Assembly: GCF_003113265.1 (NCBI RefSeq)
Contig: NZ_PUIV01000005.1
Coordinates: 124,001-188,000 of the forward strand
DNA length: 64,000 nucleotides
Direction of reading: 5' to 3'
Origin: Methylosinus sporium
GTDB lineage: Bacteria > Pseudomonadota > Alphaproteobacteria > Rhizobiales > Beijerinckiaceae
Part shown: one piece after another, positions 4,059 to 20,500 of the stretch
Layout of the letters: every line of letters begins with the position of its first letter
How positions within the stretch are numbered: the stretch's first letter is position 1
The notes under the pieces: generated by a model
What the model saw: only the letters and a program-made list of their open reading frames with translations
What the model was told of the DNA's origin: nothing
Databases searched by the model: none
Program-made: the position numbers and the translations under genes

Positions 4059-4604
4059 ATGGCGCAAAAGTCGGACGCGCGCTCGTGTGACATCGTCACG
4101 CAGGCGAAGCTGCTCTATGACGCGGGCGTTACGCCGATCACGGAGGTGCGCGCGATGCTCGGCATGAGCGAGAGCGCGTTCCGCAGCTTTCGTGAAAGAG
4201 AGGGATGGCCGCTGCGGCCGTCGCCGATCAAGCGCAAGAGCGCCGAAGCGCCCCCCGTGTCGGAGCGACGGAGCGTCGCGCCGCCGCCGAGAGAGTCGCG
4301 CAGCCTCATCGCGCGGCTGGAGGAGGCGGTGGAGCGCGAGTTTCTGCGCGCCGAAACGGCGCTCGCGACATGCGGCGCAAAGGCGGCGCCCAAGACCATG
4401 GAGACGAGCGCACGCGTGCTCGCCAGCCTGGTGCGCAGCTTGGCGGAATTGAAGCGGATGAATCGCGACGCCGGCGCGGCGCGAGCGGAGGACGAGCTTG
4501 ATCGAGACGCTTTCGACGACGAGCCTCCCCGCCAATTGGCCGAACTCCGCGAGGAGCTTGCTCGCCGGCTCGAGCGCATGTGCGGCGAAGGGCCGGCTCG
4601 ATGA
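4059..4604 (+). CDS. Terminase small subunit-like protein
   Basis: 181 residues from the ATG at 4059, chosen because GGAGG lies at 4047-4051. Residues 10-45 (VTQAKLLYDAGVTPITEVRA and following) look like a helix-turn-helix module with a tryptophan after it (EGWPLRPSP), as in small terminase or DNA-recognition subunits of Rhizobiales phages and GTAs. A basic, proline-rich linker and a helical C-terminus rich in Arg and Glu follow. It overlaps the large terminase gene by about 107 nt in another frame. The role, packaging-site recognition or stimulation of TerL, is inferred from position and domain. Confidence 0.7.
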   Translation: MAQKSDARSCDIVTQAKLLYDAGVTPITEVRAMLGMSESAFRSFREREGWPLRPSPIKRKSAEAPPVSERRSVAPPPRESRSLIARLEEAVEREFLRAETALATCGAKAAPKTMETSARVLASLVRSLAELKRMNRDAGAARAEDELDRDAFDDEPPRQLAELREELARRLERMCGEGPAR

Positions 4605-5886
4605 GCTGATCGACGGATTTTCCGCGCGCGAGCTCGAAACGCTGCTCGCCGATTGGGAGTTCTGCGCGCGCGAGGATCAATGGCCGCCCTTGCTGGCGCC
4701 GGGCGGCGAGCCCTGGCGGGTCTGGCTGATATTGGGCGGACGCGGCGCCGGCAAGACGCGCGCCGGCGCCGAATGGGTGCGCGCCATCGCGCGCGGCCGG
4801 CCCCAATTTGCGACGCGACCCTTGTCGCCGATCGCGCTCGTCGGCGAGAGCGCCGCGCATGTGCGCGATGTGATGATCGAAGGCGTCTCTGGAATACTCG
4901 CCGCGCATCCGCGCAGCGAGCGGCCCTTGTGGGAGCCATCGCGCAAGCGGCTCACTTTCGACAATGGCGTCGTCGCGCAGGCTTTCTCGGCCGAAGATCC
5001 CGAGAGTCTGCGCGGCCCGCAATTTTCCGCCGCCTGGTGCGACGAGCTGGCGAAATGGCGCTATGCCGACGAGAGCTGGGACATGCTGCAATTCGGGCTG
5101 AGATTGGGCGAATGGCCGCGCCAGCTCGTCACCACCACGCCGCGCCCCATTCCTTTGCTGAAGCGCCTGCTGAGCGAAGACGGCGTCGTGACGACGCGCG
5201 CGACGACGCGGCAGAACGCCGCCAATCTCGCGCCATCCTTTCTCGAGAGCGTCGTCGCGCAATATGCCGGCACGCGATTGGGACGTCAGGAGCTCGACGG
5301 CGACATTGTCGAAGAGCGCGCCGACGCTCTGTGGTCGCGCGACATGTTGGAGAGCGTCCGCGTCACCGAGGCGCCGCGGTTCGAGCGCATCGTCGTCGCG
5401 GTCGACCCGCCCGCCTCCTCGACCAGGCGCGCCGATCGCTGCGGCATTGTCGCGGCGGGGACGGCGAACGGCATCGTGTTCGTGCTCGAGGATGCGACGC
5501 TCGAGGCGGCGCGTCCAGCGCAATGGGCGCGCGTCGCGGTGGCGCTCTATCACAGGCTCGAAGCCGACGCGCTGATCGCCGAAGTCAATCAGGGCGGCGA
5601 GATGGTGCGCGCCGTCATTCACGAAGCCGATCCGTCCGTTCCTGTGAAAGAGGCGCGCGCGACGCGCGGCAAATATTTGCGCGCGGCGCCGGTCGCGCAG
5701 CTCTATGAGCAGGGCCGCGTGCGCCATGTCGGCGCCTTTCCGGCGCTGGAAGACGAAATGTGCGATTTCGGAACGAACGGACTATCGTCGGGACGCAGTC
5801 CCGATCGGCTGGATGCGCTGGTGTGGGCGGTGACCGCGCTGGCCTTGACGCCGCGCGCGGCCGCGCCGCGTATGCGGCGAGTATAA
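4498..5886 (+). CDS. Terminase large subunit (GTA gp2-like)
   Basis: 462-residue packaging motor. The ATPase domain has Walker A GGRGAGKT at about residues 80-87 and a Walker B-like AAWCDE near 178-183. The C-terminal nuclease domain shows acidic positions in VAVDPP (about 302), DALIAEVNQGG (about 358) and DRLDALVWA (about 438). The TTG at 4498 is the start of the longest frame; the homologous region begins only near residue 35 (DELIDGFSARELETLLADW), so the true start may be internal. The sequence is of the RcGTA g2 type. It is followed by the fibre-like genes rather than directly by the portal gene, which departs from the canonical order. Confidence 0.9.
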   Translation: MIETLSTTSLPANWPNSARSLLAGSSACAAKGRLDELIDGFSARELETLLADWEFCAREDQWPPLLAPGGEPWRVWLILGGRGAGKTRAGAEWVRAIARGRPQFATRPLSPIALVGESAAHVRDVMIEGVSGILAAHPRSERPLWEPSRKRLTFDNGVVAQAFSAEDPESLRGPQFSAAWCDELAKWRYADESWDMLQFGLRLGEWPRQLVTTTPRPIPLLKRLLSEDGVVTTRATTRQNAANLAPSFLESVVAQYAGTRLGRQELDGDIVEERADALWSRDMLESVRVTEAPRFERIVVAVDPPASSTRRADRCGIVAAGTANGIVFVLEDATLEAARPAQWARVAVALYHRLEADALIAEVNQGGEMVRAVIHEADPSVPVKEARATRGKYLRAAPVAQLYEQGRVRHVGAFPALEDEMCDFGTNGLSSGRSPDRLDALVWAVTALALTPRAAAPRMRRV

Positions 5887-6053
5887 GTCTGAATTCGCTT
5901 CTTCGAACGCGTAAGTCGCCTTCCTTCCCCGCTCGCCGAGCGGAGGGGGCTCTTCCTCGAATGTCGAAGCTCTTTCGCTTTGCGTCGCGGCGAGGCAGCA
6001 TAGCCCGCTTCGCTCGACCATTGATTTCGCCCTCTCGTTCATGGAGAAAAATC

Positions 6054-6281
6054 ATGACTGACGCTGTCAAGAAACTCAAAGATCTGGGAGACGGGAGCTA
6101 TGCCGATGTCGTCTCCACCGTCGATTGGCCCGGCCAATGGGATTATCTGGAAAACACCTATTCTGGAACGAATCTGACGCAGACGGTCTATAAGATCGGC
6201 GGCTCGGGCGGAACGATCATCGGCACGCTGACGATGACCTATGACGCTTCCGGCAATCTCCTCACCGTGACGCGGAGCTGA
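6054..6281 (+). CDS. Small phage accessory protein, 75 aa
   Basis: Small protein starting MTDAVKKLKDLGDGSYADVV. The LGDGSY pattern resembles N-termini of many phage appendage proteins, and the C-terminal half (GGTIIGTLTMTYDASGNLL) is predicted beta-rich. The ATG at 6054 was chosen over far-upstream codons because it starts the recognisable sequence and has a purine-rich GGAGAAAA just upstream. It ends 4 nt before the next ORF, so the two are an operon pair inserted between terminase and portal. No specific function is recognised; virion decoration or fibre chaperone are possibilities. Confidence 0.6.
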   Translation: MTDAVKKLKDLGDGSYADVVSTVDWPGQWDYLENTYSGTNLTQTVYKIGGSGGTIIGTLTMTYDASGNLLTVTRS

Positions 6282-7649: not shown

Positions 7650-9407
7650 ATGGCCAATTTCCTCTCACGCCTGTTCGGCGCGAGCGCCTCCGCTCGCACG
7701 CGCGAAGAAAAGGCCTCGCGCGCCGCCGCTACGCTCACACTGCATTCCATCGGCGCGCCGCAATGGACCGCACGCAATAATGTCGCGCTCACTCGCGCGG
7801 GTTATGAGCGCAACGCCGTCTGCTATCGCGCCGTGCGCATGGTGGCGGAAGGCTGCGCCTCCATTCCCTGGCTCGCCTATGAAGGGCGCGTCGAAAGTCC
7901 CGAGCATCCGCTGCTGCGGCTGATCGAGCGGCCGAACCCGAGCGACACGAGCGTCTCCTTCATCGAGGCGCTCGTCTCCAATCTTCTGCTCTATGGAAAC
8001 GCCTATGTGGAAGGCGCTTTCGTCGACGGTCTGCTGCGGGAGGCCTATTGCCTGCGCCCCGATCGCATGAGCGTCGTCGCCGGACGCAATGGCTGGCCCG
8101 CGGCCTATGTCTATTCCGCCGGCGGCGAGGGCGTGCGCTATGAGATACAGGGGCGCGGCATAGAGCCGATCCTGCATATTCGTCTGTTCAATCCGCTCGA
8201 CGATATCTATGGCTTTGCGCCGCTCGCCGCCGCGCAGACGGCGCTCGACACGCACAATGCCGCGAGCTTCTGGAACAAGGCGCTGCTCGACAATAGCGCG
8301 CGGCCCTCCGGCGCGCTGGTCTATGCGGGACCGGACGGCGCGCATTTGACCGACGAGCAATTCGAGCGCTTGAAGCAGGAACTCGAGGAGAATTTCTCCG
8401 GCGCCGTCAACGCCGGCCGCCCGCTGCTGCTGGAAGGCGGGCTCGATTGGAAGGCGCTGTCGCTCTCGCCCAAGGACATGGATTTTTCCGAGACGAAAGC
8501 CTCCGCCGCGCGGGAGATCGCGCTCGCCTTCGGCGTGCCGCCGTTGCTGATCGGCCTGCCGGGCGACAATACATTCCGCAATTACGAGGAAGCCAATCGC
8601 GCCTTCTGGCGCCAGACGATCATTCCGCTCGCGCAGCGATTGCAGAAGGCGTTTCACGCCTGGGCGCAGCCGGGCTTCTCGCCCTTCCGCCTCGATTACG
8701 ACGCCGACCGCATCGACGCTTTGGCCAAAGAGCGCGCGCTCGAATGGAGCCGCATCGGAGGCGCCACCTTTCTCACGGTCGACGAGCAGCGCGAAGCGGC
8801 GGGCTATGGCCTGATGGGCAAGCGCGCGAAATATTCGGCGGATCAGCCGCGCATCGCCGCCGGATCGCCGGAAGGCGGGCAGTGGACGAGCGGCGACGGG
8901 AGTGGCGGCGATCTCGCGCAGATAGCGCTGAACACGATCGCCGGCGTGGTGAGCGATGCGGGCGCGCTGTTTTCGCAGATCGCCGATTTTATCGATCTGC
9001 GGGACGAGGAGGCGAACGGCGGACACGCCATCAGCGAGCATGTCGGCAAGAGCGAAGATTATCTGTTGCGTCGTGTTCAAAGCATGCGTTTCGACTGGGG
9101 GCCGTTCAGCGCGACGCCGCGCGTCGGCTCCTTCCCTTCGCTAGAGGCGGCGCAAAAGCTGATCAATTCGACAATTGCGCAAAACAAGGACATCGTCGAT
9201 CTTGTTGCGAGCGGCGAACTCGGTGTCACGGAAGCCAAACGAATCAATGCCTGGTTCGATTCGCCGACAGGCAGAGAGGGCTATGTCCCGAGCGCACGGG
9301 GACAGCCGGACATTCGCGACACATGGGATGTTGCCGTCGTCGTGAGGCACGATGTAACATCGCCGCGTGGATATCGAGTGCTAACCGCTTTCCCCGCCAA
9401 CCCGTAG
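7650..9407 (+). CDS. Portal protein fused to RNase A-like toxin domain
   Basis: 585 residues from the ATG at 7650, start of the family-like MANFLSRLFG. Residues about 20-390 are an HK97/GTA-type portal (YRAVRMVAEGCASIPW, LLYGNAYVEG, GLPGDNTFRNYEEANRAFWR, FLTVDEQREAAGYG). At about 392-415 is the linker YSADQPRIAAGSPEGGQWTS, a boundary motif often seen before toxin modules in Rhizobiales phage proteins. After a hydrophobic spacer, residues about 450-585 resemble the bacterial CdiA-CT RNase A-like domain (PF18431-type): GGHAISEHVGKSEDYLLRRV, FPSLEAAQKLINSTIAQN, INAWFDSP, VAVVVRHD and C-terminal YRVLTAFPANP. The usual TAY is TAF here. Ordinary portals end soon after the AAGYG region, so about 190 residues are extra. 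An immunity-like gene follows 9 nt later. Confidence 0.85.
   Translation: MANFLSRLFGASASARTREEKASRAAATLTLHSIGAPQWTARNNVALTRAGYERNAVCYRAVRMVAEGCASIPWLAYEGRVESPEHPLLRLIERPNPSDTSVSFIEALVSNLLLYGNAYVEGAFVDGLLREAYCLRPDRMSVVAGRNGWPAAYVYSAGGEGVRYEIQGRGIEPILHIRLFNPLDDIYGFAPLAAAQTALDTHNAASFWNKALLDNSARPSGALVYAGPDGAHLTDEQFERLKQELEENFSGAVNAGRPLLLEGGLDWKALSLSPKDMDFSETKASAAREIALAFGVPPLLIGLPGDNTFRNYEEANRAFWRQTIIPLAQRLQKAFHAWAQPGFSPFRLDYDADRIDALAKERALEWSRIGGATFLTVDEQREAAGYGLMGKRAKYSADQPRIAAGSPEGGQWTSGDGSGGDLAQIALNTIAGVVSDAGALFSQIADFIDLRDEEANGGHAISEHVGKSEDYLLRRVQSMRFDWGPFSATPRVGSFPSLEAAQKLINSTIAQNKDIVDLVASGELGVTEAKRINAWFDSPTGREGYVPSARGQPDIRDTWDVAVVVRHDVTSPRGYRVLTAFPANP
8508..8745 (+). repeat. Portal segment duplicated downstream
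   Basis: Codons about 287-365 of the portal gene. It is the intact partner of the remnant at 9811-10048: same reading frame, no gaps, about 17 differences over about 230 nt, nearly all synonymous. Confidence 0.9.
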
Positions 9408-9416
9408 AGCACAAAC

Positions 9417-9725
9417 ATGACGAGCCCGGACGCATTCAACGAGATTGCGAACTCGTTTCACCAAGACACGTATCTGTTTCACAAGTCGTTAGACAGCGCG
9501 ATCCGTGGGAGCATCGCCGAGTTGACGCCGACGCAGATGCTCATCGCGAAGAATTATCTCGACGAGTTGTTGAGTGGAAAATACAGTCGCGAGCAGCTCA
9601 TCGACATTTGGCTGAAGAGCCCCGCCGGATCCGGCGGCTTCGGCATGCCGGACCCTCCCGAAGGGTTTTTGAACAAAATACGCGCCGCGCTCGAATTCTC
9701 GATCGCGTCGCGCGAAACAGAATAG
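9417..9725 (+). CDS. CdiI-type immunity protein (putative)
   Basis: 102 residues. The pattern FNEIANSFHQDTYLFHKSLD, then a helix, YLDELLSGKYSREQLIDIWL, and C-terminal FLNKIRAALE fits the contact-dependent growth inhibition immunity family of the CdiI_2 type, where an early FHQD and a late FL..IR..L are characteristic. It begins 9 nt after the stop of the portal-toxin gene, the expected place for a cognate immunity gene. It should bind and block the RNase A-like domain in the producing cell. It has more A/T-rich codons than neighbouring head genes, which suggests it moved in with the toxin. The family call is from memory of conserved positions, not a search. Confidence 0.75.
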   Translation: MTSPDAFNEIANSFHQDTYLFHKSLDSAIRGSIAELTPTQMLIAKNYLDELLSGKYSREQLIDIWLKSPAGSGGFGMPDPPEGFLNKIRAALEFSIASRETE

Positions 9726-9810
9726 GTCATCCGAGAGGTTCCCGAAAGCACCCGGGCTTCAGGAATAAGCCGCCGCTCCGGAATTTTCGCGCAGGCGCGT
9801 ATGGGCTCCC

Positions 9811-10048
9811 GCACGAGAGATCGCCCTCGCCTTCGGCGTGCCGCCGCTGCTGATCGGCCTGCCGGGCGACAACACCTTCCGCAATTACGAGGAAGCCAAT
9901 CGCGCCTTCTGGCGCCAGACGATCATTCCGCTCGTGCAGCGCTTGCAAAAGGCGTTTCACGCCTGGGCGCAGCCGGGCTTTTCGCCCTTCCGTCTCGATT
10001 ACGACGCCGACCGCATCGATGATCTCGCGAAGGAGCGCATCGCGTTCA
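9811..10048 (+). pseudogene. Displaced portal gene fragment
   Basis: In-frame copy of portal codons about 287-365 (it starts AREIALAFGVPPLLIGLPGD and ends near ...RIDDLAKER). It is about 93 percent identical to 8508-8745 and lacks both the portal N-terminus and the end of the portal domain. After about 10042 the reading continues into unrelated codons (IAFSVAASTK...) and stops at 10096-10098. Only two residues differ from the intact copy (Ala to Val, Ala to Asp), so the divergence arose mainly under selection on a working portal gene. It is best read as the former portal 3' end pushed downstream when a toxin-immunity cassette recombined in. Confidence 0.85.
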
Positions 10049-10148: not shown

Positions 10149-10334
10149 ATGTCCGAGATCGTCACCTCAATCATCGAGCGCGGCGATCTCGCCCATCTCG
10201 CGCTCTTCCTCTGGGCGAGCGCCGCCACTCTGTTCGCGCTGCGCGCCTTGCGCGAGCTCGGACGATCCACGCGGCGGCTCGACGCCTTCGTGCGCGAGCT
10301 CGCGCGCTTCAACCGCCGTTATGGGAGCGACTGA
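10149..10334 (+). CDS. Small membrane protein between portal and protease
   Basis: 61 residues beginning MSEIVTSIIERGDLAHLALF, with one hydrophobic segment (about 16-32) and an Arg-rich amphipathic C-terminus (LRELGRSTRRLDAFVRELAR). GTA clusters often carry a tiny ORF at this point (g3.5 position), but I cannot show homology. It ends directly before the ATG of the next small gene (TGA at 10332-10334, ATG at 10335). Confidence 0.55.
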   Translation: MSEIVTSIIERGDLAHLALFLWASAATLFALRALRELGRSTRRLDAFVRELARFNRRYGSD

Positions 10335-10508
10335 ATGAGTGTGTCTGTCTTGCCTCTCCGCTTCGCGAAACGTCGCGCGCCGCGCAAGCCGCCGCGCCTC
10401 GAGCCCGAAATCGTGTTCAAGACTTTTGTGCGCGCATTGCAGCGCCTGCGTGAGCCGCCTCATGGCGGCGGCCCTGCCGCAATCGGCGCGGCGCGGGAGA
10501 AAGCCTGA
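10335..10508 (+). CDS. Small basic protein, 57 aa
   Basis: Opens MSVSVLPLRFAKRRAPRKPP and ends AIGAAREKA; strongly basic, with no recognised domain. It abuts the previous stop exactly, and its TGA overlaps the ATG of the prohead protease (TGATG at 10506-10510). This tight packing, not similarity, is the argument that it is translated. Confidence 0.5.
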   Translation: MSVSVLPLRFAKRRAPRKPPRLEPEIVFKTFVRALQRLREPPHGGGPAAIGAAREKA

Positions 10509-11194
10509 TGGACCGAGCACTGAAGCGCGACATTCACATAGCGCGCCCTCGGCTCGAGACGAAGCGCGCGCCGCTTCCCGCAGTGATCCGCGCCGATGGC
10601 GCATTCGAAGGCTACGCGAGTCTTTTCGGCCTGCGCGACACTTGCGGCGATATCGTCGAGCGCGGCGCCTTCGCCGCGAGCTTGCAGCGAAGCGGCGCGG
10701 AAGGGGTGAAGCTGCTCTGGCAGCACCGCGCCGAGGAGCCGATCGGCGTTTGGACGGAGATCGTCGAAGACGCGCGCGGCCTCAAAGTGCGCGGTCGACT
10801 CGATCTTTCCGTTGCGCGGGCGCGCGAGGCGCTATCGCTGATCGGCGCCGGCGCGCTCGACGGACTTTCGATCGGCTTTCGCACGCTGCGTGCGGCGAAT
10901 GACCCCAAGAGCGGCGCACGGCGATTGCTCGAGCTCGATCTCATCGAGATATCGATCGTCACCTTTCCTGCGTTGCCGCAGGCGCGTATCGGCGCCGCGG
11001 CCGCGCCTTCCGCCGCAGAGCCACGCGATGCTGCTGCGGCGTTCGCCCAAAAGCTCGCGCGCCTGCGCATGTCGAGCGCCGCGCAGAGCTTCGAGACGAA
11101 GCTGCGCCGCGCCGCGCTCGCGCTAGAGCGCCGCTCCGTGCGAGCCGGCGCTCATCCCCGAGCGACAGCCGACGCCTCGTCACTGCCCGTCTGA
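10508..11194 (+). CDS. HK97-family prohead protease (GTA gp4-like)
   Basis: 228 residues of the U35/HK97 prohead protease family: FEGYASLFGLRDTCGDIVERGAF near the start, the catalytic His in LLWQHRAEEPIG, and the catalytic Ser in DGLSIGFRT, followed by LIEISIVTFPALPQA. It cleaves the capsid scaffold domain during maturation. The C-terminal 60 residues are an Ala/Arg-rich tail. It starts in a TGATG overlap and is followed after 112 nt by the capsid gene, the standard order. Confidence 0.92.
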   Translation: MDRALKRDIHIARPRLETKRAPLPAVIRADGAFEGYASLFGLRDTCGDIVERGAFAASLQRSGAEGVKLLWQHRAEEPIGVWTEIVEDARGLKVRGRLDLSVARAREALSLIGAGALDGLSIGFRTLRAANDPKSGARRLLELDLIEISIVTFPALPQARIGAAAAPSAAEPRDAAAAFAQKLARLRMSSAAQSFETKLRRAALALERRSVRAGAHPRATADASSLPV

Positions 11195-11306: not shown

Positions 11307-12536
11307 ATGTCGTCTCTCGAAACCAAGACGCTCTCCGGCGAGGAGGCGCTCGCCGATCTCCATCGCGCCTTCACCGCTTTCAAGGATACGAATGAAGAGC
11401 GCCTCGCGCAGATCGAGACGCGAATGGGCGTCGATGCGCTCACGGAAGAAAAATTGCAGCGAATCGATCGCGCGATCGACGAGACCAAGCGGCGCATCGA
11501 TCGCGTGGCGCTCGATCTCTCGCGTCCGCGCCTCGGCGCTTCGGCGAGTGACGACGCGCCGGCGCGCGAGCACAAATCCGCATTCGCGCTCTATATGCGC
11601 AGCGGCGAAGCGGTCGGCCTGAAGGCGCTCGAATCGAAGGCGCTTTCGGCGGGCTCCGGCCCCGATGGCGGCTATCTCGTGCCGACGCCGGCGGAGCAGG
11701 AGATTTTGCGTCGCCTCACGCGCCTCTCGCCCATTCGCGCCATCGCCAGCGTGCGCGAGATTTCGACGCATTCGCTGCGCAAGGCCTATTCGACGCAGGG
11801 GCCGGCCTCCGGCTGGGTGGCGGAGGCCGATCCGCGACCGCAGACCAGCAGCCAGCAGATCGTCGATCTCACTTTTCCGGCGATGGAGCTCTACGCTATG
11901 CCGGCGGCGACGCAGACATTGCTCGACGATTCCGCCATCGATGTGGAGCAATGGATCGCCGAGGAGGTGCAGACGGTTTTCGCCGAGCAGGAAGGCGCGG
12001 CTTTCGTGAGCGGCAATGGAACCGATAAGCCGAAAGGCTTTCTCGCCTATACGACGGTGGCGGACGCTAGCTGGACGTCGGGCAATATCGGCTATGTGGC
12101 GACGGGCGTCTCCGGCGGTTTCGCGGCGAGCAATCCGTCGGACGCTCTGTTCAATCTCGTCTATGCGCTGCGCGCCGGATATCGGCAGAATGGCAAATTC
12201 GTGCTCAATCGTCAGACCCAATCGACGATTCGCAAATTCAAGTCGTCGACCGGCGAATATCTCTGGGCGCCGCCCGCAACGCTCGATCAGCCGGCGTCGC
12301 TGCTGAATTTCCCGGTGGTCGAGGCCGAGGACATGCCCAATGTCGGCGCCGATAGTCTCTCCGTCGCTTTCGGCGATTTCGCGCGCGGCTATCTCGTCGT
12401 CGATCGGCTCGGCGTGCGCGTGCTGCGCGATCCTTATTCCGCCAAGCCCTATGTGCTCTTTTATACGACGAAGCGCGTCGGCGGCGGCGTGCAGGATTTC
12501 GAGGCCATCAAGCTCTTGAAATTCGGCGCCGCCTGA
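11307..12536 (+). CDS. Major capsid protein, HK97 fold (GTA gp5-like)
   Basis: 409 residues. About the first 90 form a helical, charged delta/scaffold region (LADLHRAFTAFKDTNEERLA, IDETKRRIDRVALD). The capsid fold follows, with KALSAGSGPDGGYLVPTPAE, FPAMELYAMPAATQTLLDDS, AAFVSGNGTDKPKGFL and a C-terminal strand VRVLRDPYSAKPYVLFYTTK. The protease presumably cleaves near residues 95-120, after the scaffold. Length fits phage and GTA capsids. Confidence 0.95.
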   Translation: MSSLETKTLSGEEALADLHRAFTAFKDTNEERLAQIETRMGVDALTEEKLQRIDRAIDETKRRIDRVALDLSRPRLGASASDDAPAREHKSAFALYMRSGEAVGLKALESKALSAGSGPDGGYLVPTPAEQEILRRLTRLSPIRAIASVREISTHSLRKAYSTQGPASGWVAEADPRPQTSSQQIVDLTFPAMELYAMPAATQTLLDDSAIDVEQWIAEEVQTVFAEQEGAAFVSGNGTDKPKGFLAYTTVADASWTSGNIGYVATGVSGGFAASNPSDALFNLVYALRAGYRQNGKFVLNRQTQSTIRKFKSSTGEYLWAPPATLDQPASLLNFPVVEAEDMPNVGADSLSVAFGDFARGYLVVDRLGVRVLRDPYSAKPYVLFYTTKRVGGGVQDFEAIKLLKFGAA

Positions 12537-12621
12537 GGGTGTGACCGGCGCAATAGCGGGCGGCGAGCCGATCTCGCCGCTCGTATCTCGCGTCGTCGCC
12601 AATCAGGCATGGGACAAAGAC

Positions 12622-13203
12622 ATGATTCCCGATCTTCTCACAGGGCCGGGGTCGGAGCCCGTTTCGCTCGACGAGGTCAAAGCTTGGCTTCGGCTCGATT
12701 CCAGCGACGAAGACCAGCTGTTGTCGACGCTGATCGTCTCGGCGCGCATGACGCTAGAAGCCTATACGCGGCGCTTCTTCGTGACGCAGCGTTGGCGAAT
12801 GCGGCTCGACGCCTGGCCGGCGCAGACGCTGCGCCGTCGGACCTTGGCCATTCCATTCGCGCCTCTCTCGGCCGTGTCGGATATTCGCGTCTATGATTCA
12901 TCCAATGTCGCGCAGACCGTCTCCCGCGAATCCTATCGTGCGGCGCCGACGCGCGAGGCCGGGCGGCTGGTGTTCCTCGAGCCGCCAGCGGAGCCGGGGC
13001 GCGCCTATGACGGAATCGAGATCGACATCGATGTGGGATATGGCGAAAGCGCCACGGATACGCCCGAGTCTTTGCGTCGCGCCATTCTGGCGCTCGTCGC
13101 GCACTGGCACGAAAATCGTGGAGACGCGGCGGAGACGGGCGCGGCTCTGCCGACGATCGTCCTGGCCTTGGCCAAGCCGTTTCGACGCGAGCGGCTGACA
13201 TGA
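12622..13203 (+). CDS. Head-tail connector (GTA gp6-like)
   Basis: 193 residues from the ATG at 12622. It is of the gp6/phiE125-gp8 adaptor family: SLDEVKAWLRLDSSDEDQLL, IVSARMTLEAYTRRFFV, then a beta-rich middle and SLRRAILALVAHWHENRGDA near the C-terminus. It docks on the portal ring. The upstream in-frame GTG at 12541 would add 27 unconserved residues and was rejected. It overlaps the closure gene by ATGA. Confidence 0.88.
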   Translation: MIPDLLTGPGSEPVSLDEVKAWLRLDSSDEDQLLSTLIVSARMTLEAYTRRFFVTQRWRMRLDAWPAQTLRRRTLAIPFAPLSAVSDIRVYDSSNVAQTVSRESYRAAPTREAGRLVFLEPPAEPGRAYDGIEIDIDVGYGESATDTPESLRRAILALVAHWHENRGDAAETGAALPTIVLALAKPFRRERLT

Positions 13204-13526
13204 GCGCGCCGAAGATCGGCGAGTTGCGCCTGCGCATGGGCCTCGAAGCGCCGGTCGACACGCCGGACGACAGCGGCGCGATGACGCGCAGCTATGTGAC
13301 GATCGCCGACGTCTGGACGAAATTGACGCCGCTCTCCGGCGAAGCGCGCTTCGTCGAGGAGAGGCAGGAGCAAGCGCTCGAATGGCTAGCGCAGCTCCGG
13401 TGGCGCGCCGATGTGGCGAGCGAGATGCGGCTCGTCGCCGGCGCGCGCAGGCTGCGCGTCCTAGCCGTCTATGATCCGGACGGACGGCGCCGCTTTCTGT
13501 GGTGCCGCTGCGAGGAGATCGCATGA
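13200..13526 (+). CDS. Head closure/stopper protein (GTA gp7-like)
   Basis: 108 residues with the pattern of phage head-tail adaptors: LRLRMGLEAPVDTPDDSGAM, VTIADVWTKLTPLSGEARFV, and VLAVYDPDGRRRFLWCRCEE. It seals the connector after packaging. It overlaps the preceding gene by 4 nt. Confidence 0.85.
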   Translation: MSAPKIGELRLRMGLEAPVDTPDDSGAMTRSYVTIADVWTKLTPLSGEARFVEERQEQALEWLAQLRWRADVASEMRLVAGARRLRVLAVYDPDGRRRFLWCRCEEIA

Positions 13527-13536
13527 GGGGACCCGA

Positions 13537-13947
13537 ATGAGCCGATCGCCGATCATCGTTCTGCGCCGCGTGATTCGCGCCTGCCTGGCGAGCGACGCCA
13601 CTCTCGTCGCAGCGCTCGGCGGCGCGAAAATCTACGACGAGGCGCCGCGCGGCGCCGAAGCTCCCTATCTGCTGTTCGCCGAGGCGTCACTGCGCGACTG
13701 GTCGACCACCGGCAGTCGTGGAGCCGAGCAAATCTTTACTGTCTCGGTCGTCTCGATCGAGCGTGGCGTGGCGCAGGCGCTCACGATCGGCGAGCAGATC
13801 GTCGCGCTGCTCGACGAGGCGCCGCTCATTCTCGATGGGCATCATCTCGTCGATCTGCGTCATCAGGCGAGCGAGACGCGGCGTGAGCGCAATGGTCGCT
13901 TCGCGCGGATCGATCTGCGCTTTCGCGCGACCACCGAATCTCTCTAG
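13537..13947 (+). CDS. Tail terminator, DUF3168 (GTA gp8-like)
   Basis: 136 residues from the ATG at 13537 (SPIIVLRRVIRACLASDATL, APYLLFAEASLRDWST, ASETRRERNGRFARIDLRFR). These are DUF3168 hallmarks: an N-terminal helix, the LVAALGG.KIYDEAP segment, and a late R.D.RF.A strand. It caps the tail tube at the head interface. Confidence 0.88.
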   Translation: MSRSPIIVLRRVIRACLASDATLVAALGGAKIYDEAPRGAEAPYLLFAEASLRDWSTTGSRGAEQIFTVSVVSIERGVAQALTIGEQIVALLDEAPLILDGHHLVDLRHQASETRRERNGRFARIDLRFRATTESL

Positions 13948-13977
13948 CCTCAACGATAGATATTCTGGAGCCATCGC

Positions 13978-14388
13978 ATGTCCGCACAAAAGGGCAAAGA
14001 TCTGCTTTTGAAGGTCGATGACGGCAGTGGAGCCTTCATTTCCGTCGCCGGCCTGCGCACGCGGCGACTTTCGCTGAACGCCGAGGCCGTCGATGTCACC
14101 GACGCGGAATCGAGCGGACGCTGGCGTGAATTGCTGGACGGCGCCGGCGTGAAGCGCGCGAGCCTCGCCGGGACCGGAATTTTCAAGGATCAGGCTTCGG
14201 ACGGTCTCATTCGGCAGCTCTTCTTCGACGGCGTGCTGCGCCAATGGAAACTCGTGGTCCCCGATTTCGGCGTCATGACGGGTTCGTTCCAAATCACGAG
14301 CCTCGACTATCGCGGCGAACACAATGCCGAAATGACCTTCGACATCGCGCTCGAATCCGCGAGCGCGATCTCTTTCACGCCGGCGTGA
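13978..14388 (+). CDS. Major tail tube protein (GTA gp9-like)
   Basis: 136 residues of the TP901-1/GTA tail tube family: AQKGKDLLLKVDDGSGAFIS, AEAVDVTDAESSGRWRELLD, GVKRASLAGTGIFKDQASDG and a C-terminal FDIALESASAISFTPA. It polymerises around the tape measure. Its start follows DUF3168 by 30 nt. Confidence 0.92.
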   Translation: MSAQKGKDLLLKVDDGSGAFISVAGLRTRRLSLNAEAVDVTDAESSGRWRELLDGAGVKRASLAGTGIFKDQASDGLIRQLFFDGVLRQWKLVVPDFGVMTGSFQITSLDYRGEHNAEMTFDIALESASAISFTPA

Positions 14389-14398
14389 GGCTCTCTTC

Positions 14399-14749
14399 AT
14401 GGCCAATCGGAAACGCGGCGACGTCGAGGCGACGCTGGACGGAGAGACCTATCGTCTCTGCCTCACGCTCGGAGCGCTCGCCGAGCTAGAGAGCGGGCTC
14501 GGCGTCGACGATCTCGTCGCGCTCGCGGAACGTTTCGAAGCGCGCCGCCTTTCGGCGCGTGATCTCATTCGCGTCATCGGATGCGGATTGCGCGGCGCAG
14601 GATATGAAATGAGCGACGACGAAGTCGCGCGCATGACCGTCGCCGCGGGGCTCGGCGATTATGTGAAAATCGTCGCAAATCTATTGGCCGCGACTTTCGG
14701 AGATGGCGGCGACGCAAACCCTCCGCCGCCGCGGGACACGAGCGGATGA
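14399..14749 (+). CDS. GTA gp10 family tail assembly protein
   Basis: 116 residues matching the GTA_gp10 family: MANRKRGDVEATLDGETYRL, then LCLTLGALAELESGLGVDDL, and LIRVIGCGLRGAGYEMSDDE. It is a tail assembly chaperone-type protein. Overlap with the next ORF (ATGA) suggests coupled production, as for tail chaperone pairs. Confidence 0.88.
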   Translation: MANRKRGDVEATLDGETYRLCLTLGALAELESGLGVDDLVALAERFEARRLSARDLIRVIGCGLRGAGYEMSDDEVARMTVAAGLGDYVKIVANLLAATFGDGGDANPPPPRDTSG

Positions 14750-14949
14750 GGCCTCAGCCCTTTCCTTGGGCGCGGGCCATGGCCTTCGGTCTCGGCGTGC
14801 TGCGCCTCGCGCCGCGCGACTTCTGGGCGATGACGCCGCGTGAATTGGCCTGTGCGGCCGAAGGCGTCTATGGCCGCGCTGTCGGCGCGCCGTCGCGCGA
14901 CGCTTTGATGGCGCTGATGCGCGCGTTTCCTGATGGAGACGAAAAGTGA
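14746..14949 (+). CDS. GTA gp10.1 tail assembly chaperone (DUF2376)
   Basis: 67 residues with the signature FPWARAMAFGLGVLRLAPRD, FWAMTPREL and DALMALMRAFPD. This is the short protein found between gp10 and the tape measure in GTA clusters. It overlaps both neighbours by 4 nt. Confidence 0.88.
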   Translation: MRPQPFPWARAMAFGLGVLRLAPRDFWAMTPRELACAAEGVYGRAVGAPSRDALMALMRAFPDGDEK

Positions 14950-15536
14950 CCGATTCGACCAGCAACGAAAATGGCGTGCAACTCTCCTTCGATCCGTCCT
15001 TTCATGCGCTCGATCTGAAGACGACGAAAGCGCTGCTGCAAGACATAAATGTCGCCGCCGCCACGGCGACGAAGACATTGTCCAGCGGGCTCGCCGGCGC
15101 GGCGGCGAATGGCAAGAGCTTCGACGCGACGCTCGCTTCCATCGCGCGCTCGCTCGCCGAACTCGGCGTCGACGCAGGAACGCAGGCGTTGACGCAAGGC
15201 CTGACGAGCGGACTGAGCAGATTGCTGTCGGGCGCCTTCGGGACGGGAGGCGGCGCTTCGGTGGCGCCATTCGCAGAGGGCGGCGTCGTCGCCAGTCCGA
15301 CATTCTTCGGCGCGAATGGGGCCGTCGGACTCATGGGCGAGCGCGGGGCCGAGGCGATCATGCCGCTGGCGCGCGGGCCGGATGGACGGCTCGGCGTGTC
15401 GATGCAAGGCGCGCAACAATCCGTCGCCGTGACTGTCAATATCGCTGCGCAGGACGTTGACAGCTTTCGGCGTTCCGAAGGGCAGATCACCGCGGCTTTG
15501 GCGCGCGCGGTGGCGCGTGGCCGGCGCAATATTTGA
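14946..15536 (+). CDS. Short tape measure protein (GTA gp11-like)
   Basis: 196 residues from the GTG at 14946. A helical N-terminal part (TKALLQDINVAAATATKTLS) is followed by the GTA tape-measure C-terminus: GGSxxxPFAEGGVVASPTFF-type segment (here VAPFAEGGVVASPTFFGANG), then LMGERGAEAIMPLARGPDGR. Such a short tape measure implies a short tail, as for RcGTA. The GTG overlaps the previous TGA. Confidence 0.85.
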   Translation: MTDSTSNENGVQLSFDPSFHALDLKTTKALLQDINVAAATATKTLSSGLAGAAANGKSFDATLASIARSLAELGVDAGTQALTQGLTSGLSRLLSGAFGTGGGASVAPFAEGGVVASPTFFGANGAVGLMGERGAEAIMPLARGPDGRLGVSMQGAQQSVAVTVNIAAQDVDSFRRSEGQITAALARAVARGRRNI

Positions 15537-15548
15537 GGATGAGGCGCC

Positions 15549-16190
15549 ATGACGGATTTTCACGAGACGCGCTTTCCGCTGGACATATCGCTGAATGGAC
15601 GCGGGGGGCCGGAACGCCGTACCGATGTGGTCACGCTCGGCTCCAATCGTGAGTCGCGCAATGCGCGATGGGCGCACTCGCGCCGACGTTACGAGGCAGG
15701 CTATGGGGTAAAATCGCTGGCGCAGCTCGCCGCGGTGATCGAATTCTTCGAGGAGCGGCGCGGTCGGCTGTTCGGCTTTCGCTGGCGTGATCGCGCCGAT
15801 TTTTCCTCCGCGCGATCGGGCGGAGCGGTTTCGGCGAGCGATCAGACGCTCGGCGTCGGCGATGGCGCACGCACGCAATTTCAGCTGCTCAAGACCTATG
15901 GCGAGAGCTTCGCGCCTTATGCGCGCGTCATCGCCAAGCCGGTCGCAGACAGCGTTCGCGTCGCCGTCTCCGGCGTCGAAAAGACGTGCGGCGTCGATTT
16001 CGGCGTCGATACGACGAGCGGCGTCGTGACCTTCGCGCCTTCGGCGGCTCCGCCGACAGGAGCCGCGGTGACGGCGGGCTTTCTCTTCGATGTGCCCGCG
16101 CGATTCGATGCGGACTATCTCGAAATCGACGTCTCCTCCTTCGAGGCCGGCGCGATTCCGAAAATTCCGATCATCGAAATCGTTCCTTGA
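15549..16190 (+). CDS. Distal tail protein, DUF2460 (GTA gp12-like)
   Basis: 213 residues of the TIGR02217/DUF2460 family: FHETRFPLDISLNGRGGPER, RTDVVTLGSNRESRNARWAH, FFEERRGRLFGFRWRDRADF and QLLKTYG. It forms the distal tail ring. Length and motifs are complete. Confidence 0.93.
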   Translation: MTDFHETRFPLDISLNGRGGPERRTDVVTLGSNRESRNARWAHSRRRYEAGYGVKSLAQLAAVIEFFEERRGRLFGFRWRDRADFSSARSGGAVSASDQTLGVGDGARTQFQLLKTYGESFAPYARVIAKPVADSVRVAVSGVEKTCGVDFGVDTTSGVVTFAPSAAPPTGAAVTAGFLFDVPARFDADYLEIDVSSFEAGAIPKIPIIEIVP

Positions 16191-16205
16191 ACGAAAGGAG
16201 CCTTC

Positions 16206-17111
16206 ATGCGTTCGCCCTCGACCGCCATGCGGGAGTGTCTCGACGCTTCGGCTTCGACCTTCTGCAATTGCTGGCGCCTCGCGCGCAAGGATGGGACGAT
16301 CGAGGGATTTACCGATCATGATCGCGATCTTTCATTCGGCGGCGTGACCTATCGCGCCGCGTCCGGCCTCACGGCGACGCAAATCGAGGCGAGCGTTGGT
16401 CTCGTGGTCGGGAGCGGCGAGGTGGTCGGCGCATTGCAATCGGACGGTCTTTGCGAGTGCGATCTGGCGGGCGGGCTCTATGACGGCGCAGGTGTGGAGA
16501 TATGGCTCGTCGATTGGCGCGACGCCGACAATCGACTGCTTCTCGATGCGACCACGATCGGCGAGGTCACGCGCAGCGAATTCGCCTTCCGCGCCGAATT
16601 GCGGTCGCTCGCGCATCTCTTCGACGAGACGCGCGGCGAAAGCTTCCAGCGCGGTTGTTCCGCCGATCTCGGCGACGCGCGTTGCAAGGTCGATCTCGGC
16701 GCTGCGTCGTTTCACACGACGGGCGTCGTGCTGGCGCTCGCTCATCTGGCGCTCGCTCATGGCGCGATCATCGCGGGCCTGGAGAGCGAATTCGCCGATG
16801 AGTTTTTCACCGGCGGCTCGCTGACTTTCACGAGCGGCGCCAATGCCGGCGCGCGCGTCACGGTAAAGTCGCATCGGCGCTCTGGCGAAAACGCCGGGAT
16901 AGCCTTGTGGTCCCGCCTCGCGGGGCCCGTCGCTTCGGGCGATACTTTCGCGATCGTGGCGGGATGCGACAAGAGTGCGGCGAGCTGCGAGCGGAAATTT
17001 TCCAATATCGTCAATTTTCGCGGCTTTCCGCATATCCCGGGCAATGATGTGGTGATGTCTTATCCGAGCTCGCTGGCGCCGTCGATGGACGGCGGGAGCT
17101 TTTTCGAGTGA
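16206..17111 (+). CDS. Tail hub protein, DUF2163 (GTA gp13-like)
   Basis: 301 residues. The N-terminal DUF2163 domain has CNCWRLARKDGTIEGFTDHD, LTATQIEASVGLVVGSGEVV and the LRSLAHLFDETRGESFQRGC segment. The C-terminal BR0599-like domain ends with CDKSAASCERKFSNIVNFRG, FPHIPGNDVV. In RcGTA the equivalent protein binds an iron-sulfur cluster through conserved cysteines; several are present here (Cys in RGCSADLGDARC and CDKSAASCERKF). It overlaps gp14 by GTGA. Confidence 0.92.
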   Translation: MRSPSTAMRECLDASASTFCNCWRLARKDGTIEGFTDHDRDLSFGGVTYRAASGLTATQIEASVGLVVGSGEVVGALQSDGLCECDLAGGLYDGAGVEIWLVDWRDADNRLLLDATTIGEVTRSEFAFRAELRSLAHLFDETRGESFQRGCSADLGDARCKVDLGAASFHTTGVVLALAHLALAHGAIIAGLESEFADEFFTGGSLTFTSGANAGARVTVKSHRRSGENAGIALWSRLAGPVASGDTFAIVAGCDKSAASCERKFSNIVNFRGFPHIPGNDVVMSYPSSLAPSMDGGSFFE

Positions 17112-17545
17112 GCGGGCTCGCGCGCGCGGCGATCGTGTCGGAGGCGCGGCGCTGGATCGCGACGCCCTATCGTCATCAGGCGTCGCTCATTCATATCGGT
17201 TGCGATTGCCTCGGGCTGGTGCGCGGCGTGTGGCGCGCGCTCGTCGGGCCGGAGCCGGAGGAGGCGCCGCCATATTCGCCAGATTGGGCGGAGGCGGAAG
17301 GCGAGGAGAGCTTGGCGCTCGCCGCCCATCGGCATTTTTCGTTTGTCGAGCGAGAGGGATTTCGCTCGGGCGACGTTCTGCTGTTTCGCTTTAAAGCGCA
17401 TTTGCCGGCGCAGCATCTCGGCATAGCGACGAGTTCCACGCATATGGTCCATGCGCATGGCGGCGCCTGTGTCGCCGAGGCGCCGATCGGAGCATGGCGC
17501 AAAAGATTGGTCGGCGCCTTCGCCTTTCCCGGCGTCACAGACTGA
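17108..17545 (+). CDS. Tail NlpC/P60 peptidase (GTA gp14-like)
   Basis: 145 residues. The catalytic Cys is in HIGCDCLGLVRGVW and the His in AQHLGIATS. It is a cell-wall peptidase carried on the tail tip that opens recipient peptidoglycan during DNA delivery. It starts at the GTG overlapping gp13's TGA. Confidence 0.93.
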   Translation: MSGLARAAIVSEARRWIATPYRHQASLIHIGCDCLGLVRGVWRALVGPEPEEAPPYSPDWAEAEGEESLALAAHRHFSFVEREGFRSGDVLLFRFKAHLPAQHLGIATSSTHMVHAHGGACVAEAPIGAWRKRLVGAFAFPGVTD

Positions 17546-17558
17546 GCTCGAGGACGAG

Positions 17559-20500
17559 ATGGCCACTTTGTTGTTGCAGGCGGCCGGCGCAGCGATCGCG
17601 CCGGTCGGCTCGATCGTCGGCAATCTCGTCGGCGCCGTCGGCGGCGCGCTCGTCGATGCGGCGCTACAGCCGCGCGGCGCGACGCGCTATGAGGTCGGTC
17701 CGCGTCTCAAAGCGATGGACGGCGTCGCCTCCACCGAGGGCGCAGCCATTCCACGCGTCTATGGTCGCGCGCGCATCGGCGGTCAGATGATCTGGGCGAC
17801 GCGCTTCATCGAGCAGGCCAATGTCTCGTTGGACGGCGGCTCCGGCAATAGCGGCAAGGGCGGGGGCGGTTCGGCGCAGACGATCGGCGTCACATATTCC
17901 TATTACGCCAATTTCGCGATCGGGCTGTGCGAGGGGCCGATCGCTTTCGTGAGGCGCATTTTCGCGGATGGAAACGAGCTCGACATGACGAGCCTTCCCA
18001 TTCGAATCTATTCGGGCGACGAGGAGCAGCTTCCCGATCCGTTGATCGTCGCCAAGGAAGGAGCGGAGAATGCGCCGGCATATCGCGGCCTCGCCTATGT
18101 CGTGTTCGAGCAATTGGCGCTGTCGGCTTTCGGCAATCGCATTCCGCAATTCACATTCGAGGTGACACGGCCGGTCGCCGGACTGGGCCAAGAGATTCGC
18201 GCGATCGATGTCATTCCGGGCGCGACGGAGGCGGGCTATCAGCCGTCGCTACAGCTGAGCTTTTTTTCGCCCGGAGCGACCAGCGCGGAAAATCGGCATC
18301 AGCTGACGGCGGCGAGCGATTGGACCGCATCGATCGACGCGCTGCAGGCGCTCTGTCCCAATCTCGAGAGCGTGGCGCTGGTCGTGGCCTGGTTCGGCGA
18401 TGATTTGCGCGCGGCTCATTGCTCGATCGCGCCGCGCGTCGATGCGACATTCAAGACGATCGGCGAGTTCGACTATATGTTCGGGCCGTTCTGGCCTGCC
18501 GATTGGTCTGTCGCAGAATCGAGTCGCGCGACGGCGCGCCTCGTTTCGCAGATCGACGGACGCGCGGCTTTCGGCGGCACGCCGAGCGACGCATCGGTGC
18601 GCGGCGCCATCGCCGATCTTCGCGTGCGAGGCGTCGCGGTCGTTTTTTATCCCTTCTTGATGATGGATGTGGCGCCGGGCAATGTCTTGCCGGACCCGCG
18701 AGCGGATGGGATCGGGCAGCCGGCTTTTCCTTGGCGGGGACGCATCACCTGCGATCCGGCGCCGGGACGCGTCGGCTCGGCGGATGGAACGAGCGAAGCG
18801 GCGACGCAGGTCGCGGCGTTTTTCGCGCAATATCGCGCGTTCATTCTACATTATGCGGAGCTTTGCGAAGAGGCGGGCGGCGTCGACGCATTTCTCGTCG
18901 GCTCGGAGCTGGTGGGGTTGACGCGCATCCGGTCCGCCGCCGGAGTCTATCCGGCGGTCGCCGCGCTGGCGTCGCTCGCCGCGGATGCGAAGGAGCTCCT
19001 TCGCAGCGGAACGAAAATCGGCTACGCGGCCGATTGGACGGAATATGGCGCGCATGTTCCCACAACGGGCGAGCTGCGCTTTCCGCTCGATCGGCTCTGG
19101 GCGTCGTCGGCGATCGATTTCGTCGGGATCGACGTTTATTGGCCGCTCTCCGATTGGCGCGATGGCGCAGACCATCTCGACGCGCAGATCGCGCGCAATA
19201 TTTATGACGCCGATTATCTTTCGGCGCGGATTGCGTCTGGCGAGGGATTCGATTGGTTCTACGCGAGCGATGAAGATCGTCTGGCGCAGATTCGCACGCC
19301 GATCGTCGATGGGCTCGGCAAGCCATGGACGTTCCGAGAGAAGGATCTCGTCGGCTGGTGGTCCAATTCGCATCACGAGCGCGTCGATGGCGCAGAGCTC
19401 GGCGCGCCGACCGCCTGGACGCCGCAGAGCAAGCCGATCTGGATCATCGAGACGGGATGTCCGGCCGTGGATCGCGGCGCCAATGCGCCCAATGTGTTTC
19501 CCGACGCGCATTCGTCGGAGGGCGGCTTGCCGTTTTTCTCGCGCGGGGGGCGCGACGATCTCATGCAGGCGCGCTTTGTCGAGGCGATGATCGCGCATTT
19601 CGATCCGACGCGCGCGGGCGGCGACGCGCGCAATCCGCTGTCGAATCTTTATGGCGGGCGCATGGTGGATCCGGCGCGCATTCATGTCTGGTGCTGGGAT
19701 GCGCGGCCGTTTCCGGCCTTTCCCGGCTGTTCCGACATTTGGACGGATTCGGCGAATTGGGAGACCGGACATTGGCTCAATGGGCGCCTCGAAGGTGCGC
19801 CGCTCGATCGGCTCATTGCGACGCTCGCCGCGACGATCGCGACCGATGGTCTCGTCGCGGAGCGGCCGGCGATCGACGGTTTCGTCGACGGCTATGTTAT
19901 CGATAGCGCCATGTCGCCGCGCGAGGCGATCGAGCCGCTCGCGTCATTGTTCGGCTTCGACGCGGTGGTGTCCGGCGGAGCGCTGCGCTTTGTTTCGCAC
20001 GCGATGAAAAGCGTGCGGGAGATCGGCGACGACGATCTCGTTCCGAGCAAGGATGGAACGCTCATCGAATTGCGGCGCGCGCAGGAGAGCGAGTTGCCGC
20101 ATGAGATCGCGTTGTCTTTCGGCGATTCGGAATTCGATTATCGCACGGGGCGCGTGCTGTCGCGGCGTCTCGAGGGCTACTCGTCGCGACGCAGCGAAGC
20201 GCAGACGGCGGTGATGATCGGGCGGAGCAACGCTCAGAGATTGGCGGATATTTGGTTGCAGGATATTTGGGCGGGGCGGGAGACGGCGCGCTTTTCGGTG
20301 CGGCCCGGCCTCGTCGCCCTCGAGGCGGGAGATGTGACCTCGTTGGCGAGGATGCCGGGGCGCCTATGGCAGATCACGCGGATCACCGATGGCGCTGCGC
20401 GCGAAATCGAGGCGCGCGCCGTCGATCCCAGCGTCTATGACGTCGGCGAGCGCTTTCTCGGCCGGCGTTCGCTCGCGGCGCCCGCCGTGATCGGGCCGCC

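What the first reader, a model, noticed from the sequence alone, without database searches (positions are those of the whole stretch)
9417..9725. Immunity-like gene directly after the portal-toxin fusion
The 102-residue product shows the FHQD ... LDELL ... IW ... FL.KIR..L pattern of CdiI_2-type immunity proteins, and the gene follows the toxin-bearing stop by 9 nt. A toxin-immunity pair embedded between portal and protease genes of a GTA-like cluster would be a self-protecting cassette.
Basis: partly seen in the sequence, partly recalled or inferred. Interest (0 to 1): 0.8.

Follow-up and report, generated by a model that had tools for sequence, protein, structure and literature searches.

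The report
Immunity gene of toxin-armed gene-transfer particle
In a Methylosinus bacterium, the gene for the DNA-entry ring of a gene transfer agent (a domesticated phage that ships host DNA between cells) ends in an RNA-cutting toxin, and the small gene behind it very probably makes the antidote; related toxin-antidote pairs sit at the same place in many relatives, so these particles may poison cells that lack the antidote.

Summary
In detail: 9417-9725 encodes an intact 102-aa protein whose ATG lies 9 nt after the stop of a portal-RNase A toxin fusion (7650-9407), inside a complete RcGTA-type cluster. The product misses every Pfam/NCBIfam cut-off. Its predicted structure (pLDDT 88) has one clear match in the PDB: CdiI of Yersinia kristensenii (5e3e), the immunity protein of the CDI toxin that is the closest solved relative of the toxin domain next door. 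The gene is under purifying selection and co-diverges with its toxin; in ten Methylosinus genomes the family occurs only at GTA toxin loci (seven with it, three empty sites). It is best read as the cognate immunity gene of a GTA-borne polymorphic toxin. The wider finding goes beyond the lead: GTA portal genes in several Rhizobiales families, and prohead protease genes in probably two genera, carry a QPRxPAGxxxGGQWT linker followed by varying C-terminal domains, with varying immunity-type genes and displaced carrier fragments, the signature of a polymorphic toxin system. No open-access paper found describes this for GTAs; MuF phage toxins are the nearest kind. Toxicity, binding and delivery by particles are inferred, not shown.

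The parts
9417..9725 (+). immunity gene (P0001, 102 aa, all-alpha, CdiI(Ykris)-like fold)
7650..9407 (+). GTA portal protein (g3-like) with C-terminal linker and RNase A-type toxin domain, 585 aa
7818..8798 (+). portal domain PF04860 (aa 57-383)
   Evidence: E 1.3e-84; TIGR01537 portal_HK97 E 2.6e-65
8844..8888 (+). linker motif QPRIAAGSPEGGQWT shared by toxin-bearing GTA portals and proteases and by effector-type proteins of phage contigs
9021..9395 (+). RNase A-type toxin domain PF18431 (aa 458-582); H464, R475, T579, F581 align with H175, R186, T276, Y278 of CdiA-CT Ykris
9809..10038 (+). displaced portal-gene fragment (relic), 93% identical to 8506-8735
4498..5886 (+). large terminase (Terminase_6N/6C)
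10149..10334 (+). small membrane-protein gene conserved after the GTA portal in relatives; marks the far border of the cassette
10508..11194 (+). prohead protease Peptidase_S78; its homologue is a second toxin carrier in G006 and probably in G056
11307..12536 (+). major capsid protein
12541..21425 (+). rest of the RcGTA-type cluster: connector, head completion, tail completion, tail tube, GTA-gp10, TAC, DUF2460, baseplate hub (16206-17111), NlpC/P60, GTA_TIM/Rcc01698

Best explanation
9417-9725 encodes the cognate immunity protein of the RNase A-type toxin domain carried at the C-terminus of the GTA portal protein. Inferred mechanism: the portal assembles as a dodecamer in the GTA head, so toxin domains are built into the particle; the toxin is delivered with DNA (possibly after cleavage in the QPRxPAGxxxGGQWT linker) and cuts RNA in recipients. 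The downstream immunity protein, translated by coupling at the toxin stop, binds the toxin at its active site in the producer and in kin that carry the same module. Shown by computation: gene, fold, cluster, co-divergence, module turnover. Inferred: toxicity, binding, packaging, delivery.
For: Toxin domain PF18431 E 1.7e-14; closest PDB sequence is 5e3e chain B, the Y. kristensenii CDI toxin. Immunity model pLDDT 88, pTM 0.81; top PDB fold 5e3e CdiI, Foldseek TM 0.71/0.73-0.76, rmsd 2.5, probability 1.00, third-ranked entry 0.28; VIA Z 12.1, rmsd 2.0 over 89 residues, next 5.8. A profile of 22 such immunity proteins finds 5e3e_A at E 0.025; six of the 22 hit CdiI_2, best 2.2e-17. In ten Methylosinus genomes all ten hits of the family lie at GTA toxin loci and the three genomes without the toxin have none. 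dN/dS where computable: immunity 0.14-0.27, toxin 0.14-0.22. Toxin and immunity distances correlate (Mantel r 0.74, n 17; 0.54 for 13 after dropping near-duplicates). In G005 the toxin is broken but the immunity gene is intact. The cluster is a GTA: GTA_TIM E 1.9e-135, Rcc01698_C, GTA-gp10. Other cargo and immunity types occupy the same slot in other genera.
Against: No direct evidence of binding; the joint model left the two domains' placement uncertain (pTM 0.57). The protein misses all Pfam/NCBIfam cut-offs, and in the PDB profile search chance helical hits (myosin light chains, E 0.0012) outscored 5e3e_A. The Y278-equivalent is Phe, and the R186-equivalent is not kept in all relatives. Toxins are broken or detached in G002 and G005, so the fusion may be costly or dispensable. 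GTA particles of Methylosinus were not examined.
Confidence: 0.86

Rival explanations
1. The toxin-immunity cassette is a selfish addiction-like module that uses the conserved GTA portal gene as a safe landing and recombination site; it stays because its loss is harmful, and no toxin is ever delivered by particles. (The small gene would still be an immunity gene.)
For: Modules differ in divergence from the portal: G005/G001 immunity dS 0.05 against portal 0.33, G000/G002 immunity dS 1.27 against portal 0.40; portal relics flank the modules; toxin and portal are separated by stops in G002 and G005.
Against: Fusions are in frame and open in G000, G004, G001, G009, G006 and G047; both carrier genes, portal and prohead protease, code for proteins that act in the phage head, which chance landing does not predict; the linker is shared with effector-type proteins of phage contigs.
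Confidence: 0.25
2. The toxin domain is not a competitor-killing toxin but an injected early effector (as proposed for the PBECR, 2H and InPase domains fused to phage portals) that dampens recipient RNA-based defence to help DNA uptake; the immunity gene only protects the producer.
For: Portal-effector fusions are described in phages (PMC5512222); phage contig L233 has a portal-like ORF with the same linker.
Against: Diverse cargo types, dedicated immunity genes and immunity arrays (G406, G009, L103) look like kin-discrimination polymorphic toxins.
Confidence: 0.15
3. 9417-9725 is a GTA structural or accessory gene, or a spurious ORF, unrelated to immunity.
For: No family hit for the sequence itself.
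Against: Absent from the three Methylosinus GTA clusters without toxin; purifying selection; CdiI fold match; most GTA clusters elsewhere in the family have no room for a gene there.
Confidence: 0.03

Closest known systems
CdiA-CT/CdiI of Yersinia kristensenii (PDB 5e3e; bacterial RNase A superfamily)
   Same: Toxin domain homologous in sequence (E 1.2e-5) and fold (target TM 0.86); catalytic His conserved; immunity protein of the same all-alpha fold encoded directly downstream here.
   Different: Carrier is a GTA portal protein, not a CdiA adhesin; Y278 replaced by Phe; immunity only about 20-24% identical.
MuF polymorphic toxins of temperate phages (PMC5576092; Bxa, PMC11699363)
   Same: [quoted passage not shown] delivery in the capsid proposed.
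   Different: Carrier is the portal itself (or prohead protease), in a GTA conserved across the family rather than a prophage; no MuF domain was found in the window fusion.
Polyvalent/portal effector fusions of phages (PBECR-, 2H-, InPase-portal; PMC5512222)
   Same: Effector domain fused to a portal domain, presumed to enter the recipient with DNA.
   Different: The passages read mention no immunity gene and no GTA; here the C-terminal domain varies and is paired with immunity genes.
Orphan cdiA-CT/cdiI modules of CDI systems (own knowledge)
   Same: Displaced toxin/immunity modules with fragments of the carrier gene between them, allowing module exchange by recombination.
   Different: The repeated fragments are portal or protease gene pieces inside a GTA cluster.
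RcGTA of Rhodobacter capsulatus (structure PMC7296036)
   Same: Gene content; portal gp3 forms the dodecamer at the head vertex.
   Different: The word toxin does not occur in the structural paper; here the portal has a C-terminal extension of about 185 aa.

Membership tests
CdiI_2 (PF18593) | Match of this protein above the Pfam cut-off | tested here: not met
   No Pfam hit up to E 10 for P0001; four of the ten members of A1 hit CdiI_2, best E 5.6e-4, and in the wider set A2 six of 22, best 2.2e-17.
CdiI(Ykris)-type immunity proteins of RNase A toxins | Same all-alpha fold as 5e3e CdiI | tested here: met
   Foldseek TM 0.71, probability 1.00; VIA Z 12.1 over 89 residues.
CdiI(Ykris)-type immunity proteins of RNase A toxins | Encoded directly downstream of an RNase A-type toxin domain | tested here: met
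   9 nt after the toxin stop here; same arrangement in relatives.
CdiI(Ykris)-type immunity proteins of RNase A toxins | Binds and blocks the toxin active site | tested here: inconclusive
   Read-through single-chain model pLDDT 81, pTM 0.57; domain placement not confident.
Bacterial RNase A toxin domain (PF18431) | Profile match above cut-off and conserved catalytic His | tested here: met
   55.1 bits against cut-off 27; His invariant in the alignment, Thr/Ser and Phe/Tyr at the T276/Y278 positions.
RcGTA-like gene transfer agent | RcGTA gene set in order including GTA_TIM/Rcc01698 and GTA-gp10 | tested here: met
RcGTA-like gene transfer agent | Conserved within the lineage (not a sporadic prophage) | tested here: met
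   Portal relative in 10 of 10 genus genomes and 78 of 119 family genomes.
RcGTA-like gene transfer agent | Particles that package random host DNA | not testable with these tools
   Needs induction and particle sequencing.
Polymorphic toxin system | Constant N-terminal carrier with varying C-terminal domains plus varying downstream immunity genes | tested here: met
   Portal plus linker with RNase A-type, L103/G119-type and other unassigned C-terminal domains; CdiI-like, SUKH, DUF6968, DUF4279, DUF7336 genes in the slot. Toxicity of the unassigned domains is inferred.
MuF toxin family | MuF domain in the carrier | tested here: not met
   Fusion hits only PF04860 and PF18431 in Pfam.

The most novel reading that the evidence does not exclude
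Gene transfer agents of Rhizobiales are armed: their portal (and in some genera prohead protease) doubles as carrier of a polymorphic toxin system, so that particles deliver a toxin along with DNA and only recipients with the matching immunity gene survive to use the DNA, making GTA exchange kin-restricted.
Probability: 0.45. Interest if true: 0.93.

Novelty: new variant of a known kind. Interest (0 to 1): 0.8.

Why it matters
GTAs are usually treated as vehicles of gene exchange, and what keeps them is an old open question. A toxin-immunity pair built into the portal would give producers a direct advantage over non-kin and would tie gene transfer to kinship. It turns the question of what GTAs are for into a simple experiment with defined genes, and adds a carrier to the known routes of polymorphic toxin delivery.

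Tried and rejected
Direct HMM assignment of P0001 (Pfam, NCBIfam, PHROGs) and phmmer against the PDB gave nothing. Plasmid and phage collections have no relative of the immunity protein, and the phage collection none of the toxin region. Profile search of the PDB alone was not decisive: myosin light chains score better than 5e3e_A and are taken as chance helical matches. Comparison with a single unrelated CdiI_2 protein was weak (probability 16.5). Joint folding of toxin and immunity through the stop codon (TAG read as Gln, possible because the two genes are in frame) gave good single domains but no confident interface; an alignment that mixed in unpaired immunity rows was dropped because they aligned to the toxin. 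The alignment A1 could not be used in genome contigs; a single-protein scan named one relative, Methylosinus sp. Ce-a6. Most GTA portals in the family census end within about 50 nt of the next gene, so the cassette is an addition, not a normal part of GTAs. Literature searches for GTA with polymorphic toxin, or GTA with toxin and immunity protein, gave nothing on this subject; only open-access papers were searched.

Full report
What is there. ORF 9417-9725 (102 aa) is real and starts 9 nt after the TAG of a 585-aa protein (7650-9407) made of an HK97-type portal (PF04860, E 1.3e-84), a short linker with the motif QPRIAAGSPEGGQWT and a bacterial RNase A-type toxin domain (PF18431, E 1.7e-14). 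[quoted passage not shown] The active-site residues of that toxin are His175, Arg186, Thr276 and Tyr278 (PMC9086364); the window has His464, Arg475, Thr579 and Phe581 in these places (read; the pairing with the published numbers rests on their spacing). The catalytic His is invariant in the alignment; the Arg is not kept in all relatives.

The setting is a gene transfer agent. From large terminase to host-specificity protein the genes have RcGTA-type families in order: Terminase_6, portal, Peptidase_S78, capsid, connector, head completion, tail completion, tail tube, GTA-gp10, TAC, DUF2460, baseplate hub, NlpC/P60, GTA_TIM with Rcc01698_C. A portal relative is in 10 of 10 genomes of the genus and 78 of 119 of the family. 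One near relative is named Methylosinus sp. Ce-a6, so the genus is taken to be Methylosinus.

The small protein. It matches no family model by itself. With 21 relatives AlphaFold2 gives an all-alpha model of pLDDT 88 and pTM 0.81. The one clear PDB match is CdiI of 5e3e, the immunity protein of the very toxin that is closest to the neighbouring domain: Foldseek TM 0.71 (0.73-0.76 by target), rmsd 2.5, while the next entry has 0.28; VIA-align Z 12.1, rmsd 2.0 over 89 residues, next 5.8. Sequence evidence agrees but is weak: a profile of 22 immunity-type proteins, most of them encoded behind RNase A-type toxins, finds 5e3e_A at E 0.025, below chance helical hits, and six of the 22 hit CdiI_2. 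Membership of PF18593 is therefore not claimed for this sequence; kinship with the RNase A-toxin immunity proteins is.

It behaves as an immunity gene. In the ten Methylosinus genomes the family is found ten times, always at a GTA toxin locus, and not in the three genomes whose portal lacks the toxin. Toxin and immunity distances correlate over 17 pairs from Rhizobiales (Mantel r 0.74; 0.54 for 13 less similar pairs); the second module of G006 is closer in both toxin and immunity to G001 than to the first module of its own genome. dN/dS, where it could be computed, is 0.14-0.27 for the immunity genes and 0.14-0.22 for the toxin. In G005 the toxin frame is broken while the immunity gene stays intact. 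The window's immunity gene has no clear ribosome-binding site before its ATG, so translation coupled to the toxin stop is likely (inference).

Modules move. Behind the window's immunity gene lies a portal fragment, 9809-10038, 93% identical to 8506-8735, and portal fragments lie behind the modules of G004, G002, G001 and G006 too. The G002 fragment is 99% identical to its own portal; the G001 fragment is closer to the portal of G005 (94.7%) than to its own (91.9%). Module and portal divergences disagree in both directions: immunity dS 0.05 against portal 0.33 for G005/G001, 1.27 against 0.40 for G000/G002. Toxin and immunity have lower G+C (0.59, 0.56) than the portal (0.65). Three relatives (G008, G007, G003) keep the empty site: portal end followed by the small membrane-protein gene. 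This is how orphan CDI modules look (own knowledge): new toxin-immunity cassettes recombine into the 3' end of the carrier gene and displace the old end.

The system is polymorphic and wider than the genus. G006 has two modules in tandem behind its portal and a third fused to the prohead protease, followed by a protease fragment. A further Methylosinus-like contig, L227, has two modules and a portal fragment. In the family census most portals end within about 50 nt of the next gene, but G059, G406, G019, G034, G115, G072 and G047 have cargo of about 1-3 kb, nearly all with the linker. G047 has an intact portal-RNase A fusion (PF18431 E 5e-12). Cargo genes include DUF6968 (G019, G059), DUF4279 (G115) and DUF7336 (G047); G033 (and by sequence G071) has a SUKH protein in the slot without a linker. 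G056 carries the linker and a C-terminal domain in an ORF at the place of the protease end, followed by DUF2019; Pfam found no domain in that ORF. Outside the family, G180, G489, G312 and G119 have the linker at or near the GTA portal end. L103, a GTA contig filed as viral, has a portal with another C-terminal domain, followed by a small gene, a SUKH gene and a CdiI-like gene. The same linker occurs in effector-like ORFs of phage contigs, in one case in a portal-like ORF (L233), which suggests a common head-associated effector architecture.

Mechanism. Portal gp3 of RcGTA is a dodecamer at the head vertex (PMC7296036). Both observed carriers, portal and prohead protease, act in the (pro)head, which points to loading of the toxin into the particle; release by cleavage in the linker is a guess. 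Delivery with DNA, RNA cleavage in recipients and protection of kin by the immunity protein are inferred by analogy with MuF toxins (PMC5576092, PMC11699363) and CDI. A joint model of toxin and immunity did not fix their interface.

Novelty. Phage portal-effector fusions (PMC5512222) and MuF toxin-immunity pairs are known. A polymorphic toxin-immunity system on GTA structural genes was not found in the open-access literature. I rate it a new variant of a known kind; if particles deliver the toxin it would change how GTAs are viewed.

Noticed in passing
window 5760-6281 and 6286-7497: Two ORFs (173 and 403 aa) between large terminase and portal; the 403-aa one had no match in the other Methylosinus GTA loci and neither has a Pfam hit.
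   Followed up: partly
L080 (G002) about 4315-4440; L083 (G005) about 4095: In two relatives in-frame stops at or just after the GGQW motif separate portal from toxin; in G005 the toxin is also frameshifted.
   Followed up: partly
L082:1237-2334: Toxin plus immunity gene fused to the GTA prohead protease in G006, followed by a protease-gene fragment.
   Followed up: yes
L125:1910-3516: ORF at the GTA protease end of G056 with the linker and a C-terminal domain with an IHHIVEQ stretch, overlapping a DUF2019 gene: probably another toxin type on a protease carrier.
   Followed up: partly
L103:1488-4693: IMG/VR 'viral' contig that is a GTA cluster: portal with another C-terminal domain, then a small gene, a SUKH gene and a CdiI-like gene; G119 (L217) has the same domain type.
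   Followed up: partly
L228-L238: The linker QPRxPxGSPEGGQW also occurs in effector-like ORFs of phage contigs, in L233 at the end of a portal-like ORF before what looks like an ADP-ribosyltransferase domain.
   Followed up: partly
L166 and L167 (portal to membrane-protein gap): A SUKH-1 type protein sits in the same GTA slot in G033 (and by sequence similarity G071) without linker or visible toxin.
   Followed up: partly
L122 (G082): Fragments of the major capsid gene are repeated downstream of the GTA capsid gene; cause not examined.
   Followed up: no
L010-L028: Stand-alone RNase A-type toxins, most with the same linker, many with a CdiI-like or other small gene downstream, in other Rhizobiales families; their N-terminal carriers were not identified.
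   Followed up: partly
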